Position numbers and translations under genes: made by a program. A DNA stretch of 64,000 nucleotides from Methanohalophilus mahii DSM 5219 (lineage in GTDB: Archaea; Halobacteriota; Methanosarcinia; Methanosarcinales; Methanosarcinaceae): NCBI RefSeq assembly GCF_000025865.1, contig NC_014002.1, positions 1,550,001 through 1,614,000 on the forward strand, read 5' to 3'. The notes under the pieces were generated by a model. That model did not search any database. It worked only from the letters and a program-made list of their open reading frames with translations, and had not been told where the DNA came from. Below are positions 2,918 through 15,992 of this stretch, piece after piece; positions within the stretch are counted from its first letter, which is position 1; the number at the start of each line of letters is the position of its first letter.

Positions 2918-2995
2918 GGGCCTATAGCTTAGTCTGGTTAGAGCGCTCGGCTCATAACCGAGCGATCACCGGTTCGAATCCGGTTAGGCCCACCA
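2918..2995 (+). tRNA. tRNA with CAT anticodon (Met, or Ile2)
   Basis: The acceptor GGGCCTA pairs with TAGGCCC, the anticodon loop CTCATAA gives CAT, the T arm is CGGTTCGAATCCG, and the terminal CCA is encoded (2993-2995). It could be elongator tRNA-Met or the tRNA-Ile2 whose C34 is modified; sequence alone does not separate them with certainty. Its 3' end is the left copy of a 22-bp direct repeat found again at 8066, so it looks like an integration target. Confidence 0.9.
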
Positions 2996-3002
2996 AAATA
3001 TT
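2981..3002 (+). repeat. Left attachment repeat (attL) in tRNA 3' end
   Basis: This copy overlaps the T-arm end, acceptor 3' strand, discriminator and encoded CCA of the CAT tRNA and extends 7 bases beyond it (AAATATT side). It is identical over 22 bases to 8066-8087. Confidence 0.7.
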
Positions 3003-3550
3003 TTAGATTTTCCTAAACGTTCAAGAAGTATCCACTACAATATTTTTATGAAGTTTGACCGACAGACAGCGGTAGAGCGTATTTTTTAATTTACTGAGGG
3101 TTCTTCATACCTATCAGATAATAAAATGACCACAATGCGCGCCTATGTGTTTTTATGGATGATCTTTTGTCTGCCCAACCCAACTGTGGCAGTCTTCTTT
3201 TTGATATACTGAATATCTCTTTTTTGTGATCATTAAAATCGAAGTATCTCTTTATTTTATCTCTCCTCGTTTTTACAATTTTTTGGCTAAAAATTTGACA
3301 GCCTTTTCAGATCTTCTAACTCGGTACACAATTGTATTTTATATTGTTTTCAAACAAAAGTATCCACAAATATCTTAATGGAATTTGACAGACGAACATT
3401 ATTATTCAAAAAATAAGGCTTCAATAGGTAAATTCAGGCCCAATTTACTTAATTACATCTATTTGAAGCAAAAAGAGAGAATCTCATAGAATGTTATATG
3501 AAATAGTTGATACTGTTCAATGGGGTTTGCTGACAAAAATGCAAAACTTT
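3003..3550. other. Gene-free AT-rich stretch with an imperfect direct repeat
   Basis: No convincing gene is present. The stretch holds two related copies of about 40 bases, at 3026-3067 and 3358-3397, both starting AAGTATCCAC and both carrying TTTGAC(C/A)GAC further on (roughly three quarters identical). It lies between the tRNA and the end of the histidine kinase. It may be a remnant of a lost gene or insertion; no terminal inverted repeats were found. Confidence 0.5.
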
Positions 3551-6500
3551 TTAGGTTGATGAAAGTGGAGATGTTTTCTTTAACAAGGGGTGGATACTGT
3601 CAAACTCGGGTTGTTTCAACGGAATAGTGAACATAAAGGTACTGCCTTTACCAATCTCACTTTCAACCCAAACTTCTCCGCCATGTTTCTCAACATATTT
3701 TTTGACAAGGGCAAGCCCAAGTCCTGTACCCCCGTATTTCCGGGACGTTGAAGCATCCACCTGCATGAAGGGATCAAATATTGTTTCAAACTTATCCTCA
3801 GGAATACCAATCCCCGTATCTTTAACCGCTATTTCCACCCGATCTCTATCAACTTTTCTGGCAGACATGGACACTCTGCCATTTTCATCGGTGAATTTAA
3901 TAGCGTTGCTTAATAGATTGAAAATGATCTGTTTAATCTTACTTTTATCGGCATTGATTTCTATATCCACAGATTTACTTATTTCAAGGTCAATGGATTT
4001 TTTCTGTGCCTGTAGTGAAATGATGGATTCAATATCAGAAAAAACAGAATTCAGTTTGAAATCATCACAAACAAATTCCATTTTACCGGCTTCTATCTTC
4101 GAAAGATCCAGTATTTCATTAATCAGATAAAGAAGATGTTTGCCACTTTTGTTTATGTTGGCTGTATATTTTTCCTGTTTTTGAGTTAACTTCCCGAACG
4201 TTTCACCATTTAATATATCAGAAAAGCCTATTATTGAATTTAAAGGTGTACGCAGTTCATGACTCATATTTGCCAGGAATTCACTTTTGGATTTATTTGC
4301 GTATTCAGCCTGAGCTGCCAATTCGTTGGCTTTTAGAACGGTATCTTCCAACCGTTTATTGGTTCCTTTTAATACATCAAAATTCCTGCTGTTTCGCAGG
4401 GCTATGGCTGCATGTTCTCCAAAAGTTTTTGCAAGCCATGCGTCATGTATTGTGAAATCGCCGTCTTTATAGGCAAATCCCAGTACTCCTACTGTTTTAC
4501 CTTCTATGTTTAATGGAGAGAAAAGAACGTTTGGCAAAACCATATGCCCCTCAGGCATGTATTTGACCCATTCACTTGCCATGAAGTCATTTTCAAAAAC
4601 CACTTCTCCTGTCTCATATGCTTCATTTCGCAAACCTCTGACTGGCATAGGCAAATCGGGATCCACAGAACAAGGCATGCCTCCATCTTCCAGAAACAGG
4701 AGTTCGTTTTCTTCTCCTGTATCTGATAATAGAGCCACATAACCTGCTTTTGCACCTATGACCCGTGCACATGCATCAAATATATGCCGTGCCACCACCT
4801 CGAAATCGTCAATTTCCAGAATAGCCCGGGTAGAATTCAAAAGTTCAGTAATTTCTTTTTCTCTATGTTGGGAACGATTTAGTGCTTCAGAGAGATCTGA
4901 TTCTGTGCTTTTTTGTATGGTTATATCTTTTACAAAACCAATTACCCTACCTTCGGGCAAAGCAGCAGCTGTAACCCTCCACCACTTTCTGTCTCCCTCT
5001 TTAGTCAAATATGGGATTTCAATATCAATTTTACCTTTATTTATTACATCTTCAAATTGATCAATTACATGTCTATGAATATCATGTGGCAGTAGTTCCA
5101 GTAGATTCATTCCAAGTAATTCATCTTTTGAATAACCTGTCATCTCGCAGGCAGCAGGATTGACATCTACATAATAACCATTTTCATCTGCAATGAAAAT
5201 ACCAGCAGGGGCCTGAGTTATATAGCTCTTGAATTTCGCTTCACTTTTTATTAATGTATTTTCAGTTTCTTTACGTTCAGTAACATCACGGGTATTGATC
5301 AGTACCCGTTTTTGACCATTTTCATCAACATAAGAAGTGGCGACAGATTCCAACCAGATATAACCTTTTTCGGGATGCAGATACCGGTATTCAGCATGGT
5401 GTTGCTCTCCGGTTTCAACAATTTCTCCAAATATGCCGGCAACAAAATCAATATCATCAGGATGCAGGTCCTTCATACAGTTTTTTCCCAGTAATTCTTT
5501 GCCCCTGCCAAGAATTCGTTGATGGGAAGGAGAGATGTATGTATAGCGACCTTCGACATCTGTTTCAAGTATAACATCATTCATATTCCGGCTCATCAGA
5601 TGCAGATGGGTTTCATATTGGTCTCTCTTTTTTTCCATTTCGATCTTATAGAGAGCAAAGCCCAGATCATCTGAAACTTCTCGGAACAGGTCGTGTATTT
5701 CATCCATATCGGCATATTTTCGAGGAACTGCAACCGATAATATACCATACACCTTTGAATTATATTGCAGTCGATAACATAAAGATGCACGGTCGGAATA
5801 CTTAAATGAGAGTGGACATTCAAAACAATTTCCAGCAGGATCATCCATAATCAAAATTTCGTCTTTTGCCAAGACTTGCTGCATGCATTGTGGAAATATA
5901 CCTTCTTTTAATTGCCTGTCCAATCGGTCAAAACCACTGGCAAAATCGGAAAAAGAAGATGCTGTTGATATGACATTCTTCTCATCATCAACAAGTGCAA
6001 TCCAGGCACTGTAGTACCCCAGTGTTTCTGTCAGGTTGCTGCAGGCTTTCTGGATAAGTCGCTCCGGATCGTGCTCCTTTACAATCATCTGGTTGATATT
6101 GCGGATTGCAAGAAGGACATTTTTGATATGTTCCTCTCGCTTCTGTGCGTTTTTTATGTCAGTTATATCCCTGCCAATACCCTCCAGTGCAATAAGATCA
6201 CTGTTTCTGTCATAGACAGGGGTATTTCTTTGTTCAATCCATACAACCTGCCCGTCTTTATGGATCCAGCGAACTTGGATTGGTTTGTCTATTGGAGTTT
6301 TACCCTCAATATAATCCAAAAAACGTTGTTTGTCATCCGGATGGATTATTTTTACAGCCAGTTGTGGATCCAGATAATGTTCTTCGGGTGTGTATCCAAC
6401 AAGTTTAGTTGAAGCTTTGTTTACATGTGTAAAACCGGGTGTGGGAGTAAATTCATAACGATAGATCAGGTCAGAAGAACGTTCGGCAAACTCGTAAAAC

Positions 6501-6877
6501 TTGGCTTCGTTTTGCGACAGGACTGAAAAAAGAGTAACAAAATATCCTTTTTCAGAAGATTTAGCATTTATCTGGTACCATTTTCCCAGTGGTTCAGAAT
6601 ACTGAACAAAACTTATATCCTCACCTGTCAATGCCACATGTCCAAAAAGTGCGGCCCAGTCAAAATCATCCTCCACAATTTTAGGAAGCACTTCAGTAGC
6701 TGTTTTGTTGAGAATATGGTCTTTTTTCAGGCCGGTCATATCCTCAAATGCAGAATTTACATCAAGAAACTGGTAATTTACAGGTTTGTCGTTTTCATCA
6801 AGGATGATTTTATGGCGAGCATAGGCGAAAGTATATTCCTCAAAATTTGTATATGCTGGAGTCGGCATGATAATCAT
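3551..6877 (-). CDS. Multi-sensor PAS/GAF histidine kinase
   Basis: A 1108-aa soluble hybrid of sensor modules and a histidine kinase. In order: an N-terminal PAS (about 10-115), PAS/PAC (about 130-245, with YTPEEHYLDP), GAF-like (about 260-420), PAS (about 430-545), PAS (about 550-665), GAF (about 685-850), then HisKA with H873 in SHELRTP, and HATPase_c with N-box NLLSNAIKF (N987, N991), DTGIGIP (D1020) and GGTGLGL (near 1049). There are no membrane segments and no receiver domain, so the signal is probably cytoplasmic and the partner regulator lies elsewhere. Methanosarcinales carry many such kinases. No good ribosome binding site is visible; an ATG three codons later (6868) is an equal candidate start. 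The gene lies inside the tRNA-bounded island with a hairpin repeat just upstream. Confidence 0.9.
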   Translation of the reverse strand: MIIMPTPAYTNFEEYTFAYARHKIILDENDKPVNYQFLDVNSAFEDMTGLKKDHILNKTATEVLPKIVEDDFDWAALFGHVALTGEDISFVQYSEPLGKWYQINAKSSEKGYFVTLFSVLSQNEAKFYEFAERSSDLIYRYEFTPTPGFTHVNKASTKLVGYTPEEHYLDPQLAVKIIHPDDKQRFLDYIEGKTPIDKPIQVRWIHKDGQVVWIEQRNTPVYDRNSDLIALEGIGRDITDIKNAQKREEHIKNVLLAIRNINQMIVKEHDPERLIQKACSNLTETLGYYSAWIALVDDEKNVISTASSFSDFASGFDRLDRQLKEGIFPQCMQQVLAKDEILIMDDPAGNCFECPLSFKYSDRASLCYRLQYNSKVYGILSVAVPRKYADMDEIHDLFREVSDDLGFALYKIEMEKKRDQYETHLHLMSRNMNDVILETDVEGRYTYISPSHQRILGRGKELLGKNCMKDLHPDDIDFVAGIFGEIVETGEQHHAEYRYLHPEKGYIWLESVATSYVDENGQKRVLINTRDVTERKETENTLIKSEAKFKSYITQAPAGIFIADENGYYVDVNPAACEMTGYSKDELLGMNLLELLPHDIHRHVIDQFEDVINKGKIDIEIPYLTKEGDRKWWRVTAAALPEGRVIGFVKDITIQKSTESDLSEALNRSQHREKEITELLNSTRAILEIDDFEVVARHIFDACARVIGAKAGYVALLSDTGEENELLFLEDGGMPCSVDPDLPMPVRGLRNEAYETGEVVFENDFMASEWVKYMPEGHMVLPNVLFSPLNIEGKTVGVLGFAYKDGDFTIHDAWLAKTFGEHAAIALRNSRNFDVLKGTNKRLEDTVLKANELAAQAEYANKSKSEFLANMSHELRTPLNSIIGFSDILNGETFGKLTQKQEKYTANINKSGKHLLYLINEILDLSKIEAGKMEFVCDDFKLNSVFSDIESIISLQAQKKSIDLEISKSVDIEINADKSKIKQIIFNLLSNAIKFTDENGRVSMSARKVDRDRVEIAVKDTGIGIPEDKFETIFDPFMQVDASTSRKYGGTGLGLALVKKYVEKHGGEVWVESEIGKGSTFMFTIPLKQPEFDSIHPLLKKTSPLSST

Positions 6878-6897
6878 ATCTTATGCATAGATAATTG

Positions 6898-6983
6898 GAT
6901 GGGCAAGACATTGTAGAAAAACAGTTAGGATATGGTATGTTGGTGGTGGTACGATATGAAATCTGTTTTCAATCTTGCCCATC
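6898..6983 (+). repeat. Hairpin repeat element, copy A
   Basis: An outer stem GATGGGCAAGA (6898-6908) pairs perfectly with TCTTGCCCATC (6973-6983). An inner stem GAAAAACAG (6916-6924) pairs with CTGTTTTC (6963-6970) with one bulged A. The apical loop (6925-6962) contains GGTGGTGGTACGATATGAAA. Copy C at 12802-12887, read on the minus strand, has the same layout and the same loop core but different stem bases that still pair. It lies directly upstream of the histidine kinase start. It is either a small structured RNA or a MITE-like repeat. Confidence 0.65.
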
Positions 6984-7203
6984 TATATATTATATATAGT
7001 TAATACTATATTAAGATATGTAACCGCGTGAACTATAATTAATAGTGAATATATTTAACAAATAGAAATAATTATATATTTAATATATAAACAATGAATT
7101 ATTGCTTTAAAATATTAAATCCGGTTAAAATTTTCAAGACAAATGTTTTTTATGTTATCATCTATATGCAGTAATTGCAACCCGTGTAGTGGTATACGAG
7201 TAT

Positions 7204-7274
7204 AAGTAGGACTCCAATCAAAAATTCGGTGGTGGTATGAGTGGTACAAAAAACGCGGTATTGGAGTCTTACTT
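7204..7274 (+). repeat. Hairpin repeat element, copy B (divergent)
   Basis: A 15-base inverted repeat (7204-7218 against 7260-7274, one mismatch, AAGTAGGACTCCAAT type) encloses a 41-base loop with GGTGGTGGTATGAGTGGTAC. The loop resembles the core in copies A and C, while the stem sequence is unrelated. No clear inner stem is seen. Confidence 0.5.
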
Positions 7275-7553
7275 GGTCTTTAACATCCCTCAAAAAATAA
7301 AACGATTTTTCTATTTCAGTTTTCTCCAATTTGCTATAAGTAACTGATTCCAATCATAATGCCTTCTGATACGTTATACAATTGAAATTATTAACTTCAT
7401 CCAGTCCCTATGGATTTCTCAAATATCTTATCTCTCCTTTACAAAGCCAACTTTTCTTTCTCTTAATAATTAACATCGATATTTTTAGAGGAAACATGTT
7501 ATATCCATGCCATCCCAATTACTAATAGTCTAATTTGGGCGAGTAGGAGAAAC

Positions 7554-7976
7554 ATGATTCATCATGATAAAGTGTTTGATACAGTTATACGATATGTTAC
7601 TTTTTCCATCCTTTATGTACTATTAATAGCAATAATTGTGGGGTTACTAAATCTTATATATAATGTTTTATATATACTGTATGAATTTCTTGGCGGCAAT
7701 TTTATCCACATAAATTTCATCGAGATAGTTGTTGGCGTTCTTACAATTTTTATCCTTATTGACCTTTTCAAGACTTTCGTTGATTATCGTGAACATAAAC
7801 GAATCAGACTTGTATACATAACAGATGCTACTATTTTGATAGTTATGCGTGAAATAGCAGTGGGTGTTTATGTAAGTCGAATCGAATATGAATTTATTTT
7901 AAGTTTATCAATATTACTACTTGTATTGGGTATAATACGACTATTATCTGTAAAATATCCTACTGATAATGTATGA
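7554..7976 (+). CDS. PsiE-like membrane protein
   Basis: A 140-aa protein with four predicted membrane segments (about residues 15-40, 55-75, 85-105 and 112-132) and a charged stretch VDYREHKRIR between the second and third. The overall pattern matches the PsiE family (phosphate-starvation-inducible in E. coli), whose biochemical role is unknown. The start ATG has AGGAG 6 bases upstream. It sits alone in the right part of the tRNA-bounded island, in strongly AT-rich sequence, so it may be a cargo gene. Whether it responds to phosphate here cannot be seen. Confidence 0.7.
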   Translation: MIHHDKVFDTVIRYVTFSILYVLLIAIIVGLLNLIYNVLYILYEFLGGNFIHINFIEIVVGVLTIFILIDLFKTFVDYREHKRIRLVYITDATILIVMREIAVGVYVSRIEYEFILSLSILLLVLGIIRLLSVKYPTDNV

Positions 7977-8038
7977 TCTTCTATCCCTGTCATTTGCAAT
8001 GAATAGACAAGTATAGAGATTTCCAATTAAATTTCTCC

Positions 8039-8067
8039 GAGTTTCCCACACACGTGGGGATGAAACG
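8039..8067 (+). repeat. Solitary type I-E-like CRISPR repeat
   Basis: A 29-base unit starts GAGTTTCCCAC and ends GTGGGGATGAAACG. It has the length and layout of type I-E CRISPR repeats: a CCCAC/GTGGG hairpin and a GATGAAAC-like 3' tail. Against the E. coli repeat as I remember it, about 21 of 29 positions agree, and the stem differences are paired (CCCGC/GCGGG to CCCAC/GTGGG). No second copy follows at spacer distance and there are no cas genes, so this is not an array. The last bases CG run straight into the right attachment repeat. Confidence 0.5.
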
Positions 8068-8087
8068 GTTAGGCCCACCAAAATATT
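8066..8087 (+). repeat. Right attachment repeat (attR-like)
   Basis: Exact 22-base copy of 2981-3002: a detached piece of the tRNA 3' end including CCA. No other tRNA parts surround it, so it is not a functional tRNA. It marks the right boundary of the putative island. Confidence 0.65.
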
Positions 8088-8161
8088 ATACTAATCCCAA
8101 ACATCCAACGATTTTTAATTATAACATCTTTTTATGTACCCAGGAGCAGACACTTCTTATT

Positions 8162-9562
8162 TCAGGAAACATGCCAGTCACTGTAGACATACTCAACACC
8201 AGTATTTGATCCAACAACCCGGATTCCAATCCGATACGTCTCTCCCACAGGAACCTTCAGGTTCGAAACCTCATAAGAGACTGCTTCATCCACATCAATA
8301 TCGGGGATCTGGTCGCTTGCAACCTGGTCCCAGACCATGCCCTCCTGTGTGGCTTCAAGGGCAGTGTAAATAATGACATCTTCGGCTTTTGCAGAACCAA
8401 CATTCTCTACCTCGATATCAAGGTCAATGTAGGAAAAACGGGAATCGTGTCTTCCACCGCCTGCAAAGTCAACTGCAATTTCTGGATAGCCGGCAGTAAT
8501 GGGAATTATCCGAGCATCGGAATTCCTATATACAGTGGGAATCCTGCCCACTTCCCAGCCTGAATTTGTTGTTTCAAGGTAGAAATATTTCACTCCCAAG
8601 TAATCATAATAACTTCCGGGAAAGTCATCGCTGCCCCTTACCCCCACAGCCATATGACCGGGCAATTCAATCAGCGACACGCCATATCCCATGTCATACA
8701 AAAGTGCCGCAAGGAGGATAGAGGAATCTTCACAATCCCCGCCTCCGTGGTACATTGTTTCAAAAGGGAACCTGGGATATTCATCATAACCTGCAGAAAC
8801 ACTGTCACTGACATAAGGAAGGGACTGGACAAAAAGCATGGTTATGTAAGGAATTTCCTCCCGACCGTAACCTGCCTCCTCTGCCAGATTTTCCATTTGT
8901 AATGTGATCTGTGATATGAATGCGTCATCATAAGGGTCATTTACAAAATGCACCCAGTGACGATAACGGGTTCTCTGTGAATATAATTCATAAGCTTCTG
9001 TGTCATATCTGGCCTGGAGCTGGAATTGCCTGTCGTCATACTCCCATACATAATTCCTGGTGATTGAGTCTTTTTCAATTCTGACCGTTGGTTTCCTTTC
9101 ACTAGCCGGGGCAGGAAAATCTACATCCAGATATATTTCCGGTTTCAAAGTGTATGATAAGTCGATGACAAAGCTGTTATCGTATATACTGTCCAGTTTG
9201 ATTGAATAGATTATGAACTGCTCTTCAGGGTCCCATACATCATAACTGCGGCCAGTAAATATCTTTTTAGTACCATATTCATAGCCATCTTTCCTCAAAG
9301 ATAAGATCGAATAGCCGTCTTTTCGGTTTATATCCAGTACCTTCAAAGAATAACCATTATCAATATCAAGTATCGCAGTTTTCTTCAGGGTTGCATTGTA
9401 CACTTTTACATCAGTTTCCGGTGAATCAGGTGTAGAAACATCATCAACAGAGGTTTGATCCTCTGGAATTTCAACGGTTGAGTTTGCTTCTTCTGTGCAA
9501 CCCATAAAGGAAAGGGACAGAAAGACAATTACAAAAACAGAAGTCAATTTACTTTTTTGCAT
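8162..9562 (-). CDS. Transglutaminase-like lipoprotein
   Basis: A 466-aa exported protein. The N-terminus (KSKLTSVFVIVFLSLSFMGC) is a lipoprotein signal with Cys22 as the likely lipid site, followed by an acidic Ser/Thr-rich linker. The middle has a transglutaminase-like core: the catalytic-type Cys in GGDCEDSS (about 275), His in LPGHMAVGV (about 303) and a downstream acidic position. The C-terminus resembles a beta-rich CARDB-like domain (DLDIEVENVGSAKAEDV). It probably acts on the outer face of the membrane or in the S-layer zone as a protease or isopeptidase-like enzyme. An AGGATGTG site precedes the ATG. A second, non-lipoprotein relative is at 26311. Confidence 0.75.
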   Translation of the reverse strand: MQKSKLTSVFVIVFLSLSFMGCTEEANSTVEIPEDQTSVDDVSTPDSPETDVKVYNATLKKTAILDIDNGYSLKVLDINRKDGYSILSLRKDGYEYGTKKIFTGRSYDVWDPEEQFIIYSIKLDSIYDNSFVIDLSYTLKPEIYLDVDFPAPASERKPTVRIEKDSITRNYVWEYDDRQFQLQARYDTEAYELYSQRTRYRHWVHFVNDPYDDAFISQITLQMENLAEEAGYGREEIPYITMLFVQSLPYVSDSVSAGYDEYPRFPFETMYHGGGDCEDSSILLAALLYDMGYGVSLIELPGHMAVGVRGSDDFPGSYYDYLGVKYFYLETTNSGWEVGRIPTVYRNSDARIIPITAGYPEIAVDFAGGGRHDSRFSYIDLDIEVENVGSAKAEDVIIYTALEATQEGMVWDQVASDQIPDIDVDEAVSYEVSNLKVPVGETYRIGIRVVGSNTGVEYVYSDWHVS

Positions 9563-12801: not shown

Positions 12802-12887
12802 GTAATGAGCAAGGCTGAAAAGCAGCTTTCATATCGTACCACCACCATACCACCAATCTGCTTTTTTTACGATACCTTGCTCATTAC
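12802..12887 (-). repeat. Hairpin repeat element, copy C
   Basis: The outer arms GTAATGAGCAAGG (12802-12814) and CCTTGCTCATTAC (12875-12887) are perfect complements over 13 bases. The inner arms AAAAGCAG (12818-12825) and CTGCTTTT (12858-12865) are perfect over 8. On the minus strand the loop reads TGGTGGTGGTACGATATGAA, as in copy A. Stem bases differ from A at several positions but pairing is kept. It starts about 14 bases past the stop of the radical SAM gene at 12901, so on the minus strand it lies in that gene's 3' region. Confidence 0.65.
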
Positions 12888-12900
12888 CTGATCGTAAAAA

Positions 12901-13599
12901 TTACCCATTAGCAATTATCTTGCGCCCTTTTTCTCCCACAATTATTACACGGGGCACCTGTTCTACAATAATATTGGCAAGGCTTTCCATATCCTCCCAT
13001 GCAGGCACAGGCGAGGTGTATCCTGCAAAAGGAAGATCAAATTCAGGATTGCTTAGGAATTGATAAAGAAGTACCTCAGAAGCTCCTTCCATAACAGGCA
13101 ACATCCTCTTCACGGATTCTTCAGTAACATAGCCGGGAATTACACGAACCCAGAGCCGCAACCATCTGGTTTTAGCAATATCTATCGATGTTTTGAGATT
13201 TTCAACATATTGTTTTACCCTTTTGGAGGAAAGTCCTGTAAGTTCCTCAAGTGCAGCCGTATCTTCAAGTGGAGCTTTTAATTCCAGAACAAAACCTTTT
13301 ACAAAGGGAAGTGATTGTTCCATTACTTCAGGTTTCATTCCATCTGACTTTAGAATAATCTCCACTCCCATTGAATACAACCGCTCAAGCAACGGGATTA
13401 GATCCTTCTGGAGAGTGGGTTCGGCCCCTCCGATAAAAACCTTCTTTACAGCCGAATTGCTAACAAAGTCCACAACTTCATCTATACTGTATTCCTCAAA
13501 GGGTTGCCTGATATGAATACAATAGGGGCATTTCAGGTTACATCCAAAAAAATCCAGATGTACCTGTTCTCCCTTTAAACTCATATTAATAAGGCGCAT
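12901..13599 (-). CDS. Radical SAM protein
   Basis: A 232-aa compact radical SAM enzyme with the CNLKCPYC cluster motif (C20, C24, C27), a GGAEPTLQKDLIPLL segment matching the GGE-type SAM-binding motif, and the ELKAP strand. It is short and lacks extra cysteine clusters at the C-terminus, resembling archaeal activating-enzyme-like proteins of unknown substrate. It stands apart from its neighbours; hairpin repeat C follows its stop. The reaction is not known. Confidence 0.75.
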   Translation of the reverse strand: MRLINMSLKGEQVHLDFFGCNLKCPYCIHIRQPFEEYSIDEVVDFVSNSAVKKVFIGGAEPTLQKDLIPLLERLYSMGVEIILKSDGMKPEVMEQSLPFVKGFVLELKAPLEDTAALEELTGLSSKRVKQYVENLKTSIDIAKTRWLRLWVRVIPGYVTEESVKRMLPVMEGASEVLLYQFLSNPEFDLPFAGYTSPVPAWEDMESLANIIVEQVPRVIIVGEKGRKIIANG

Positions 13600-13734
13600 T
13601 TTATATTCCCACTAATAACAATAAATGTGAATATATATCAAACTTTCTAAAATCGAATTACGCCCGTAACCATGGACAAATTATAATACCAGAAAAACCA
13701 ATTTAGCCTCAAGATATGCGTTACGGGTGAACTT

Positions 13735-14031
13735 ATGGTAAAAAAACTGACCATCGAAGACCTAAAACTGAGCAAGGAGAAAATGGAAGATGAGATGGGA
13801 GCTGAAATCGAAGGGCTGTATGACCTAGTAATCCCTCCGGGCACTCCTTCATACCTGGTCTATGACCTTGTTGAAGAATTCGATCTTGAACCCCTTGAGA
13901 GAAAGATAGGTGTAAACATTGTTGAATGTGATGAAAGGGAAGTTATAGTACTCAGGGGAGAATTGGAAGCCGTTCAGGCAGCAGAACAGTATCTTTATGA
14001 TGAATTGAAAGCCTACGTGGGATCCGAATGA
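13735..14031 (+). CDS. Conserved small archaeal protein
   Basis: A 98-aa acidic protein without cysteines or membrane segments. The middle (IPPGTPSYLVYDLVEEFDLEPLERKIGVNIVECDEREVIVLRG in outline) and the C-terminal helix VQAAEQYLYDELKAYV suggest an alpha/beta fold. It has a GGGTGA ribosome binding site 5 bases before the ATG. It converges with the methanogenesis marker 2 gene, the two stops being two bases apart. I do not recognise the family; function unknown. Confidence 0.65.
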   Translation: MVKKLTIEDLKLSKEKMEDEMGAEIEGLYDLVIPPGTPSYLVYDLVEEFDLEPLERKIGVNIVECDEREVIVLRGELEAVQAAEQYLYDELKAYVGSE

Positions 14032-14033
14032 AA

Positions 14034-15011
14034 TTACTCTTTGATCCCCGTTATTAAATCCTTGCTGAAATCAAAAACATCTGCTAAATCTTTACCATCG
14101 GTTACTTTCACACAACAACTATCATCAATTTTCCCGATGACTGCAGCAGTGATACCCACTTCTTCGAATACATTCAGGCATTCATCAACATTTTCCGTTT
14201 TTGCGGTCACAATGTAACCGGTTGCGGGATAAATCATCAGCCACTGGTCCAGGGCAACATCTGCAGGTTTAGGGATTTGCCGCAGGTCTACCTCTGCACC
14301 CACCATGCTGGTCTCACAAAGCATTCCAAGTGTACCTATGGTTCCCGGATTACTGATGTCCTTGCCGGCGGTCACAAGGTGCTTTTCGCCGATCTTTTGC
14401 ATTATCATGAACCGGGAGCGAACGGTTTCAGAATCCTTGAAAGAAGTTGTATCCCAGCTATAAGGAGAATTTTTCCCCACACGACCATCCATATCATAGC
14501 CGACAATAACTGTATCACCCACACAGGCGGTGTCACTGCGGATGACACAATCCTTCTTTGCGATTCCTATAATGGAGACTGACAGTGAATTGTAAGGTGT
14601 GTCAGGATGCAGATGGCCTCCAACCATAGGCACACCAAATTTTCTCACACCGTCTTTCATACCTTGCAACATACCGTCACATACATCCTTGTGAGAAGAA
14701 GACATCACATTAACCATGGCAAGCGGCCGTGCCCCCATAGCAGATATATCGTTAATATTTACAACAACAGAAGTATAACCCGTCCACCACGGACTTGCTT
14801 CTGTGATCCTGCCCCATATCCCATCAGCCGCAAACAGGATGACTTCATCGCCACCAATATCAATTATTGCAGCGTCATCACCCATATCAACGACAGTACC
14901 CCCATAACTTTCCCTCACGTCATCAAACATACGTGCAATGTCTGCGATAGGTGCTTTGCGGGATACACCCTCAAAGTCGTGCAACTTTTGGGCAAGGGTA
15001 TGTACATCCAA
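14034..15011 (-). CDS. Methanogenesis marker protein 2 (AIR-synthase-like)
   Basis: A 325-aa protein of the PurM/ThiL/SelD superfamily: an N-terminal IADIARMF, the phosphate-binding DMGDDAAI motif (about residues 42-49), NINDISAMGARPLAMVNV, GGHLHPDTPYNSLSV, and a C-terminal AIRS domain with NPGTIGTLGML. Length and motifs match methanogenesis marker protein 2, which occurs across methanogens and whose product is unknown; superfamily members use ATP to make acyl- or seleno-phosphates. The start is TTG at 15011 with GAGGAG about 9 bases before it. It lies 12 bases behind nifB and is probably co-transcribed. Confidence 0.8.
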   Translation of the reverse strand: MDVHTLAQKLHDFEGVSRKAPIADIARMFDDVRESYGGTVVDMGDDAAIIDIGGDEVILFAADGIWGRITEASPWWTGYTSVVVNINDISAMGARPLAMVNVMSSSHKDVCDGMLQGMKDGVRKFGVPMVGGHLHPDTPYNSLSVSIIGIAKKDCVIRSDTACVGDTVIVGYDMDGRVGKNSPYSWDTTSFKDSETVRSRFMIMQKIGEKHLVTAGKDISNPGTIGTLGMLCETSMVGAEVDLRQIPKPADVALDQWLMIYPATGYIVTAKTENVDECLNVFEEVGITAAVIGKIDDSCCVKVTDGKDLADVFDFSKDLITGIKE

Positions 15012-15023
15012 TTGAAAAACTCC

Positions 15024-15992
15024 TCATTTATTCAGACGCATCATCAGAAGATTTTTTTTGACGGATTCGGCCTTTTTAAGAGCATCGACTTTAACCATAT
15101 TACGACGTTCCTCGCTCATTTGAGAAAGATCTTTACCCAGAAGCCCATAAGCATCGGACCGACACTGGCGACAGTGGCGCATTTGTTGAACATATGGTTC
15201 ACAGGAATCCTGTACAGCTTTGCGTTCCTGTGGAGTAGGAGCAGTCCAGTCAGCAAAATCGGCCTGACATATAAGAGGCATAACATTCATGATATACACA
15301 CCCATGTCATTGAGTTTCTGTGCAATCTCGATAATATGATCCTCATTGATACCCGGAACAAGCACCGTGTTGATCTTAACAACCAGTCCTGCTTCCACAG
15401 CCTTGCGGATACCTTCAAGCTGGTTTTCAAGAAGAATGCTGGCTCCTTCGACACCCCGGTAGGTTTTACCATTATAGTTTACATGATCCACAATTTTTGC
15501 CCCTATTTCAGGGTCAATGGCATTCAAAGTAACAGTTAATGTGGAAACGCCGGAATCCAGGACATCCTGTATCCTGGCAGGCAGAGCCAGACCATTGGTA
15601 CTCAGGCAGAGAGTGACATCCGGGAAATGTTGTTTTATAAGTTTGAAAGTCTCAAAGGTTTCCTCATTTGCAAGAGGATCACCCGGACCGGCGATACCCA
15701 CGACTTTAATGAAAGGATATTCTTCCAATACCTTTTGTGTTTTTTCAAGTGCCTGTTGTGGATTTAAAACTTCACTTGTGACTCCGGGCCGACTTTCATT
15801 TACGCAATCATATTTACGGTCACAGTATTTACATTTAATATTGCATTTAGGAGCCACCGACAGATGAATCCTTCCAAATTTATGTTGTGCATCCTTGTTA
15901 TAGCAGGGATGCTGGGCAATAAGCCTCTTTATCGAGTCCCGGTCTTCTTCCGACAGACATTCCTCAGGGTCCTTTCCGCTCTCTGTGGCCAA
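15024..15992 (-). CDS. nifB: NifB radical SAM cofactor maturase
   Basis: A 322-aa NifB: HPCYNKDAQHKFGRIHLSVAP, then the radical SAM motif CNIKCKYC (C50, C54, C57), the extra Cys in the KYDCVNESRPG segment, GIAGPGDPLAN, and the C-terminal HCRQCRSDAYGLLGKD that binds a further cluster. NifB builds the carbide-centred NifB-co precursor of nitrogenase cofactors. It lacks the NifX-like domain of bacterial proteins, as is usual in archaea. No nifHDK is in the window; here nifB sits upstream of methanogenesis marker 2. The start is TTG at 15992 behind GTGGAGG. Confidence 0.85.
   Translation of the reverse strand: MATESGKDPEECLSEEDRDSIKRLIAQHPCYNKDAQHKFGRIHLSVAPKCNIKCKYCDRKYDCVNESRPGVTSEVLNPQQALEKTQKVLEEYPFIKVVGIAGPGDPLANEETFETFKLIKQHFPDVTLCLSTNGLALPARIQDVLDSGVSTLTVTLNAIDPEIGAKIVDHVNYNGKTYRGVEGASILLENQLEGIRKAVEAGLVVKINTVLVPGINEDHIIEIAQKLNDMGVYIMNVMPLICQADFADWTAPTPQERKAVQDSCEPYVQQMRHCRQCRSDAYGLLGKDLSQMSEERRNMVKVDALKKAESVKKNLLMMRLNK

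What the first reader, a model, noticed from the sequence alone, without database searches (positions are those of the whole stretch)
8039..8087. Lone type I-E-like CRISPR repeat fused to the attachment repeat
A 29-nt unit with the length, hairpin (CCCAC/GTGGG) and GATGAAAC tail of type I-E repeats ends exactly where the tRNA-derived repeat begins (CGG shared). There is no array and no cas gene. Possibilities: relic of an array end, a repeat carried by the element, a Cas1-type integration event at a tRNA copy, or a tRNA-derived 'spacer' matching 2983-3002. The contact of the two signals is striking.
Basis: partly seen in the sequence, partly recalled or inferred. Interest (0 to 1): 0.55.

Follow-up and report, generated by a model that had tools for sequence, protein, structure and literature searches.

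The report
Last CRISPR repeat of lost array
A single CRISPR repeat beside a tRNA-derived repeat in a salt-loving methanogen is a genuine type I-E repeat, most likely the last surviving piece of a CRISPR-Cas module that once sat at the edge of a tRNA-linked genomic island.

Summary
Window 8039-8067 matches, at 27 of 29 positions, the repeat of I-E arrays in the same genus (Methanohalophilus). The host (2,012,424 bp, M. mahii by size) has no other copy and no I-E effector genes. The repeat touches the right copy of a 22-bp direct repeat of the tRNA-Met 3' end. Five relatives have an empty site there, so 3003-8065 is an inserted island. It carries a histidine kinase and a PsiE-like gene, and no integrase was detected. 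The same kinase/PsiE pair stands beside a CRISPR-cas module at the tRNA-Thr(tgt) hotspot of one relative. There, arrays of two types end with their terminal repeat at the island's distal edge, and one relative keeps almost only that repeat. Terminal repeats of clade I-E arrays lose the canonical tail, as this one does. Best reading: the leader-distal terminal repeat of a deleted I-E module on a tRNA-integrated island. Other solitary repeats were found: a type I-B one in this same genome, fused to a truncated terminase gene, and an I-E one cutting a photolyase-like gene in two relatives. Their junctions are exact to the repeat edge, so a recombination-scar origin stays open. A tRNA-derived spacer and a Cas1 integration event are not supported.

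The parts
2918..2995 (+). tRNA-Met (CAT), integration target
   Evidence: ARAGORN
2981..3002 (.). left copy of 22-bp direct repeat CGGTTAGGCCCACCAAAATATT (attL-like), spanning tRNA 3' end
   Evidence: direct reading
3003..3550 (.). left end of island, non-coding; first ~60 bp resembles trailers of tRNA-Ala (G060, G048) and tRNA-Gln (G048)
3551..6877 (-). PAS/GAF histidine kinase (1108 aa), paralogue of kinase at the genome's tRNA-Thr(tgt) hotspot
7554..7976 (+). PsiE-family membrane protein (140 aa); 7438-8022 is homologous to the segment beside CRISPR-cas at the tRNA-Thr(tgt) hotspot of relatives
8039..8067 (+). solitary type I-E CRISPR repeat (27 of 29 identical to genus array repeat), terminal-type tail AACG
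8066..8087 (.). right copy of the 22-bp direct repeat (attR-like), followed by native tRNA-Met trailer
8088..9562 (.). native right flank (ORF 8162-9562 on the minus strand), contiguous with tRNA-Met in relatives without the island

Best explanation
The lone repeat is the leader-distal (terminal) repeat of a type I-E CRISPR array that has otherwise been lost. The array formed the distal end of a CRISPR-cas-bearing island of the kind found downstream of tRNA-Thr genes in this genus. A derivative carrying kinase, PsiE and the module integrated at the tRNA-Met 3' end, giving the 22-bp direct repeats; a deletion from just behind PsiE into the array then removed cas genes, leader and spacers and left the terminal repeat against the right attachment copy. 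Shown: the repeat's identity, the island with an empty site in relatives, absence of I-E effector genes, the kinase/PsiE/CRISPR order at tRNA-Thr in a relative, terminal repeats at the island's distal edge in relatives, and a parallel reduction in M. halophilus. Inferred: that this island once carried the I-E module, that its arrival used a tyrosine integrase, and the order of deletion and transfer. The residue probably has no function here; with no I-E Cascade it is a scar.
For: Repeat match and solitary state. Cse1 and Cas7e families absent from this genome, present in 2 of 8 genus genomes, G033 and G055. Empty site in 5 of 5 relatives whose tRNA-Met was read. At tRNA-Thr(tgt): G033 has tRNA, integrase fragment, I-E cas, array and terminal repeat ending at T=10504, with homology to this genome's flank starting at T=10505 (T = bases after tRNA-Thr); G008 has kinase, PsiE, a 55-repeat I-B array and the conserved flank; G022 has PsiE, a partial repeat, a spacer, the terminal repeat and the flank. 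That is the same reduction as proposed here. Terminal repeats deviate in the tail in 10 of 11 I-E arrays whose distal end was visible (one of the 11, L119, is only); the window copy deviates too (AACG, as in L143).
Against: No genome examined has an I-E module at tRNA-Met. No integrase was found in the island. In G033, G055 and G006 no copy of 12 bases or more of the tRNA-Thr 3' end was found elsewhere in the read stretches, so an integrase-defined edge at the terminal repeat is not shown there. The I-E arrays of G020, G027 and G046 have no tRNA in the fetched stretch, so a tRNA address is not universal. The other solitary repeats (I-B here; I-E in G060/G048) have canonical tails and exact gene fusions that this reading does not explain. 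The tail difference of the window copy is one base, and could be a point mutation.
Confidence: 0.58

Rival explanations
1. Scar of spacer-protospacer recombination: an I-E array with self-derived spacers (PsiE downstream region; tRNA-Met 3' end) recombined with the chromosome, leaving one repeat between two chromosomal segments.
For: In G060 and G048 a canonical-tail repeat is followed at its exact edge by a photolyase-like gene; the intact gene in this genome, G022 and G033 reads AAG directly 5' of that point, as expected if the last G of the repeat came from an AAG PAM (I-E PAM and the origin of the repeat's last base from recall). The lone I-B repeat of this genome abuts a truncated terminase gene with no gap. 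The PsiE homology runs close to the window repeat.
Against: At tRNA-Met the triplet is CCG, not AAG. The expected second repeat about 32 nt after the left copy is absent. Upstream triplets at spacer length 32-33 are TAG (window), AGG (G048, 33 nt) and none of the known I-E kind in G060. None of these flanks occurs as a spacer in the G008, G033 or G055 arrays.
Confidence: 0.22
2. Solitary repeat unit carried by a mobile element as an RNA anti-CRISPR (Racr).
For: Solitary I-E-like repeat on an integrated element; SRUs are widespread in viruses, proviruses and plasmids (PMC10651486, passages).
Against: No I-E effector genes in the host, no virus or plasmid genes recognised on the island, no match to the degenerate core pattern in viral contigs nor to the 191-bp region in phages.
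Confidence: 0.07
3. Delocalised crRNA of a CRISPR-associated transposon homing to the tRNA.
For: An atypical repeat followed by sequence matching the tRNA, at an element end next to a tRNA (compare PMC11656645, passages).
Against: No Tn7-type genes: the only large ORF of the island is the kinase. The supposed guide is the target site itself, not a separate copy at the insertion distance.
Confidence: 0.02
4. Ectopic Cas1-Cas2 (or casposase) integration event at the tRNA copy.
For: The junction is at a repeat edge, where Cas1 acts; the genome encodes one Cas1, near a PolB.
Against: Spacer integration duplicates the repeat, and only one copy exists. The Cas1 stands with PolB as in casposons. The direct repeat is tRNA sequence.
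Confidence: 0.05

Closest known systems
Terminal (leader-distal) repeat of a type I-E CRISPR array, as in Methanohalophilus sp. RSK (G033)
   Same: 28-29 nt, same palindrome, GATGAA core, altered last bases, sits at the distal edge of an island downstream of a tRNA
   Different: no other repeat, no spacer, no leader, no cas genes; at tRNA-Met rather than tRNA-Thr
Reduced I-B locus of M. halophilus (G022) at tRNA-Thr(tgt)
   Same: PsiE followed by a terminal repeat and the native flank after loss of the module
   Different: type I-B repeat; a partial second repeat and one spacer remain
Solitary repeat units / Racr
   Same: single repeat without cas genes on an element
   Different: host lacks the matching effector; the element is not recognisably viral
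tRNA-integrated genomic island
   Same: direct repeat of tRNA 3' end, empty site in relatives
   Different: no integrase detected

Membership tests
type I-E CRISPR repeat | sequence matches a bona fide I-E array repeat of the clade | tested here: met
   27 of 29 to the G055 array repeat; Cse1 and Cas7e beside the G033 and G055 arrays
type I-E CRISPR repeat | array of two or more repeats with spacers | tested here: not met
   single copy in genome at up to 3 mismatches
type I-E CRISPR-Cas system | effector genes present | tested here: not met
   PF09481 and PF09344: no match in this genome
terminal (leader-distal) repeat | conserved body, divergent last 3-4 bases | tested here: met
   body 1 mismatch, tail 1 mismatch; weak, since one base only
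tRNA-integrated island | direct repeats of tRNA 3' end flanking the insert | tested here: met
   22 bp, 2981-3002 and 8066-8087
tRNA-integrated island | empty site in relatives | tested here: met
   5 of 5 relatives read
tRNA-integrated island | integrase gene | tested here: not met
   PF00589 match in this genome only at C1:480116-480616; tblastn with the G060 integrase finds none in the island
SRU/Racr | host carries the matching CRISPR subtype (usual, not universal) | tested here: not met
SRU/Racr | promoter directly upstream and small RNA expressed | not tested
   no archaeal promoter scan was run; expression data not available
CRISPR-associated transposon | Tn7-like transposition genes | tested here: not met
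   no such ORF in the island

The most novel reading that the evidence does not exclude
Solitary CRISPR repeats in Methanohalophilus are exact breakpoint scars: a repeat edge joined to chromosomal or viral DNA by spacer-protospacer recombination (or by Cas1-Cas2 joining), with CRISPR arrays acting as recombination partners that reshape tRNA-linked islands, in at least three independent cases (window I-E/tRNA-Met, I-E/photolyase, I-B/terminase).
Probability: 0.22. Interest if true: 0.7.

Novelty: new variant of a known kind. Interest (0 to 1): 0.42.

Why it matters
Published annotation counts zero CRISPR repeats in M. mahii (PMC3017947, PMC6491703; passages). Two solitary repeats of different types (I-E here, I-B at C1:449388-449424) suggest that the lineage once had two CRISPR-Cas systems and lost both. 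Single repeats can serve as fossils for mapping CRISPR-Cas gain, swap and loss at tRNA hotspots, and their exact edges make it testable whether arrays themselves take part in rearrangement.

Tried and rejected
Rfam search of 7900-8200: no match. Phage collection and viral contigs: none for the region or the core pattern. Comparison of the 30 nt before the repeat with I-E leaders of G033 and G055: AT-rich partial likeness only, and no conserved AACA before GAGTT; not taken as a leader. PAM derivation from array spacers: not achieved (see below). Search for tRNA-Thr 3'-end duplications at the I-E array ends: none of 12 or more bases. Viral relatives of the G060 fragment upstream of its lone repeat: none confirmed; a likeness to DUF3800 proteins is from recall and found no Pfam support. 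Other genomes' solitary I-E repeats (L088, L095, L108, L131, L133, L138) have no tRNA in the fetched stretch; L138 looks fused into a cas1 gene by eye, not tested. Literature searches gave no description of this case among the titles and abstracts listed. Chance likeness is rejected.

Full report
Observation. The 29-nt unit at 8039-8067 reads GAGTTTCCCACACACGTGGGGATGAAACG and is followed by the 22-bp copy of the tRNA-Met 3' end at 8066-8087. It differs at 2 of 29 positions from the I-E array repeat of genus member G055, and the window holds one such site against none in each of 100 shuffles. In the genome, 2,012,424 bp in one contig, it is the only copy at up to 3 mismatches. This size equals that given for M. 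mahii in PMC6491703 (passages read), which lists 0 CRISPR repeats for it, as does PMC3017947 (one passage read).

Is it a CRISPR repeat? A second lone relative copy is in G060 (M. profundi). Cse1 and Cas7e families are found in G033 and G055 only, 2 of 8 genus genomes. This genome has one Cas1 family match; a DNA polymerase B gene lies nearby, the layout of a casposon (recall), and no CRISPR-type array was seen in that 20-kb stretch.

The island. In G008, G022, G048, G060 and G033 the tRNA-Met 3' end runs directly into the sequence that follows 8087 in the window (5 of 5 read; G040 and G055 not read). The insert 3003-8065 carries a histidine kinase and a PsiE-family gene. No integrase was found in it; the genome's one PF00589 match is elsewhere. 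Its left end resembles trailers of tRNA-Ala in G060/G048 and tRNA-Gln in G048.

Where the island's genes come from. Segment 7438-8022 is 86-87% identical to sequence at other sites in G022, G008 and G048, all downstream of tRNA-Thr(tgt); a 92% paralogue of part of it lies elsewhere in this genome, at C1:1084597. The kinase has a paralogue after tRNA-Thr(tgt) in this genome. A tyrosine integrase, complete in G060 and fragmentary in this genome, G033 and G008, follows tRNA-Thr. At this hotspot G008 has kinase, PsiE and a 55-repeat I-B array; G022 has PsiE, a partial repeat, one spacer and a degenerate terminal repeat; G033 has the I-E cas module and array. The label I-B for the second repeat type rests on recall, not on a typed cas operon. 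In G033 the terminal I-E repeat ends at T=10504 and homology to this genome's right flank begins at T=10505; in G008 and G022 the terminal I-B repeat lies within about 45 bp of the same gene start. So two different CRISPR types occupy the same slot, each with its terminal repeat at the distal edge, and G022 shows the reduction to nearly the terminal repeat alone.

Why a terminal repeat. Of 11 I-E arrays whose distal end could be read, 10 have a terminal repeat that departs from the canonical last four bases; the exception is G055 (L119 was not in the table). The window copy departs by one base there. I therefore read it as the distal end of a deleted I-E module on a tRNA-integrated island, confidence 0.58.

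What does not fit neatly. This genome has a second solitary repeat, type I-B, perfect over 37 nt, at C1:449388-449424, whose upstream neighbour is a terminase large-subunit fragment (PF17289, 1.6e-9; phrog_38, 3.1e-17). Comparison with a 74%-identical viral homologue shows the terminase homology reaching the codon next to the repeat. In G060 and G048 the lone I-E repeat has a canonical tail and joins a photolyase-like gene (family by eye; not searched) at codon 30 or so; the intact gene in this genome, G022 and G033 reads AAG just 5' of that point, the I-E PAM known from E. coli (recall). Upstream, G048 has a galE-like gene start and G060 an unrelated fragment. These exact edges suggest recombination through spacers, or joining at repeat edges. 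At tRNA-Met the triplet is CCG and no second repeat follows the left copy, so I hold this reading at 0.22 for the window copy. No array examined carries these flanks as spacers.

Other readings. An RNA anti-CRISPR (solitary repeat unit; PMC10651486, passages) lacks a present target in the host. A delocalised crRNA of a CRISPR transposon (PMC11656645, passages) lacks transposition genes. Integration through CRISPR homology has been envisaged for viruses (PMC8616872, one passage).

Verdict. Real, explained at moderate confidence as a CRISPR relic at a tRNA island edge; of modest interest alone, of more interest as one of several solitary repeats marking lost or swapped CRISPR-Cas modules.

Noticed in passing
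L064:8389-8425 (G000:C1:449388-449424, minus strand): Second solitary CRISPR repeat in the genome, type I-B, identical to the repeat of the 55-copy array of G008, fused without gap to a truncated terminase large-subunit gene.
   Followed up: partly
L062:9806-9834 (G060) and L045:708-736 (G048): Lone I-E repeat truncating a photolyase-like gene at codon ~30; intact relatives read AAG immediately 5' of the junction; upstream neighbours differ between the two species.
   Followed up: partly
L044:9260-10477 and 12820-15198: Cas1 with a nearby DNA polymerase B gene, near tRNA-Leu(caa): a casposon-like locus, the only Cas1 of the genome.
   Followed up: partly
tRNA-Thr(tgt) locus: L064/L165 (own), L042/L160 (G033), L059/L166 (G022), L060/L167 (G008), L062/L168 (G060): Integration hotspot where I-E and I-B CRISPR-cas modules, histidine kinases and integrase remnants alternate between species.
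   Followed up: partly
L138:5012-5037: Desulfobulbaceae MAG: solitary I-E-type repeat directly after sequence that looks like an interrupted cas1 gene.
   Followed up: no
L043:15266-15291 (G055): A single I-B-like repeat about 60 bp beyond the last I-E repeat of the G055 array.
   Followed up: no
window 3003-3061; L062:9126-9192; L079:1499-1565; L084:80-140: Similar AT-rich trailers downstream of different tRNA genes, possibly arms of one integrating element family.
   Followed up: partly
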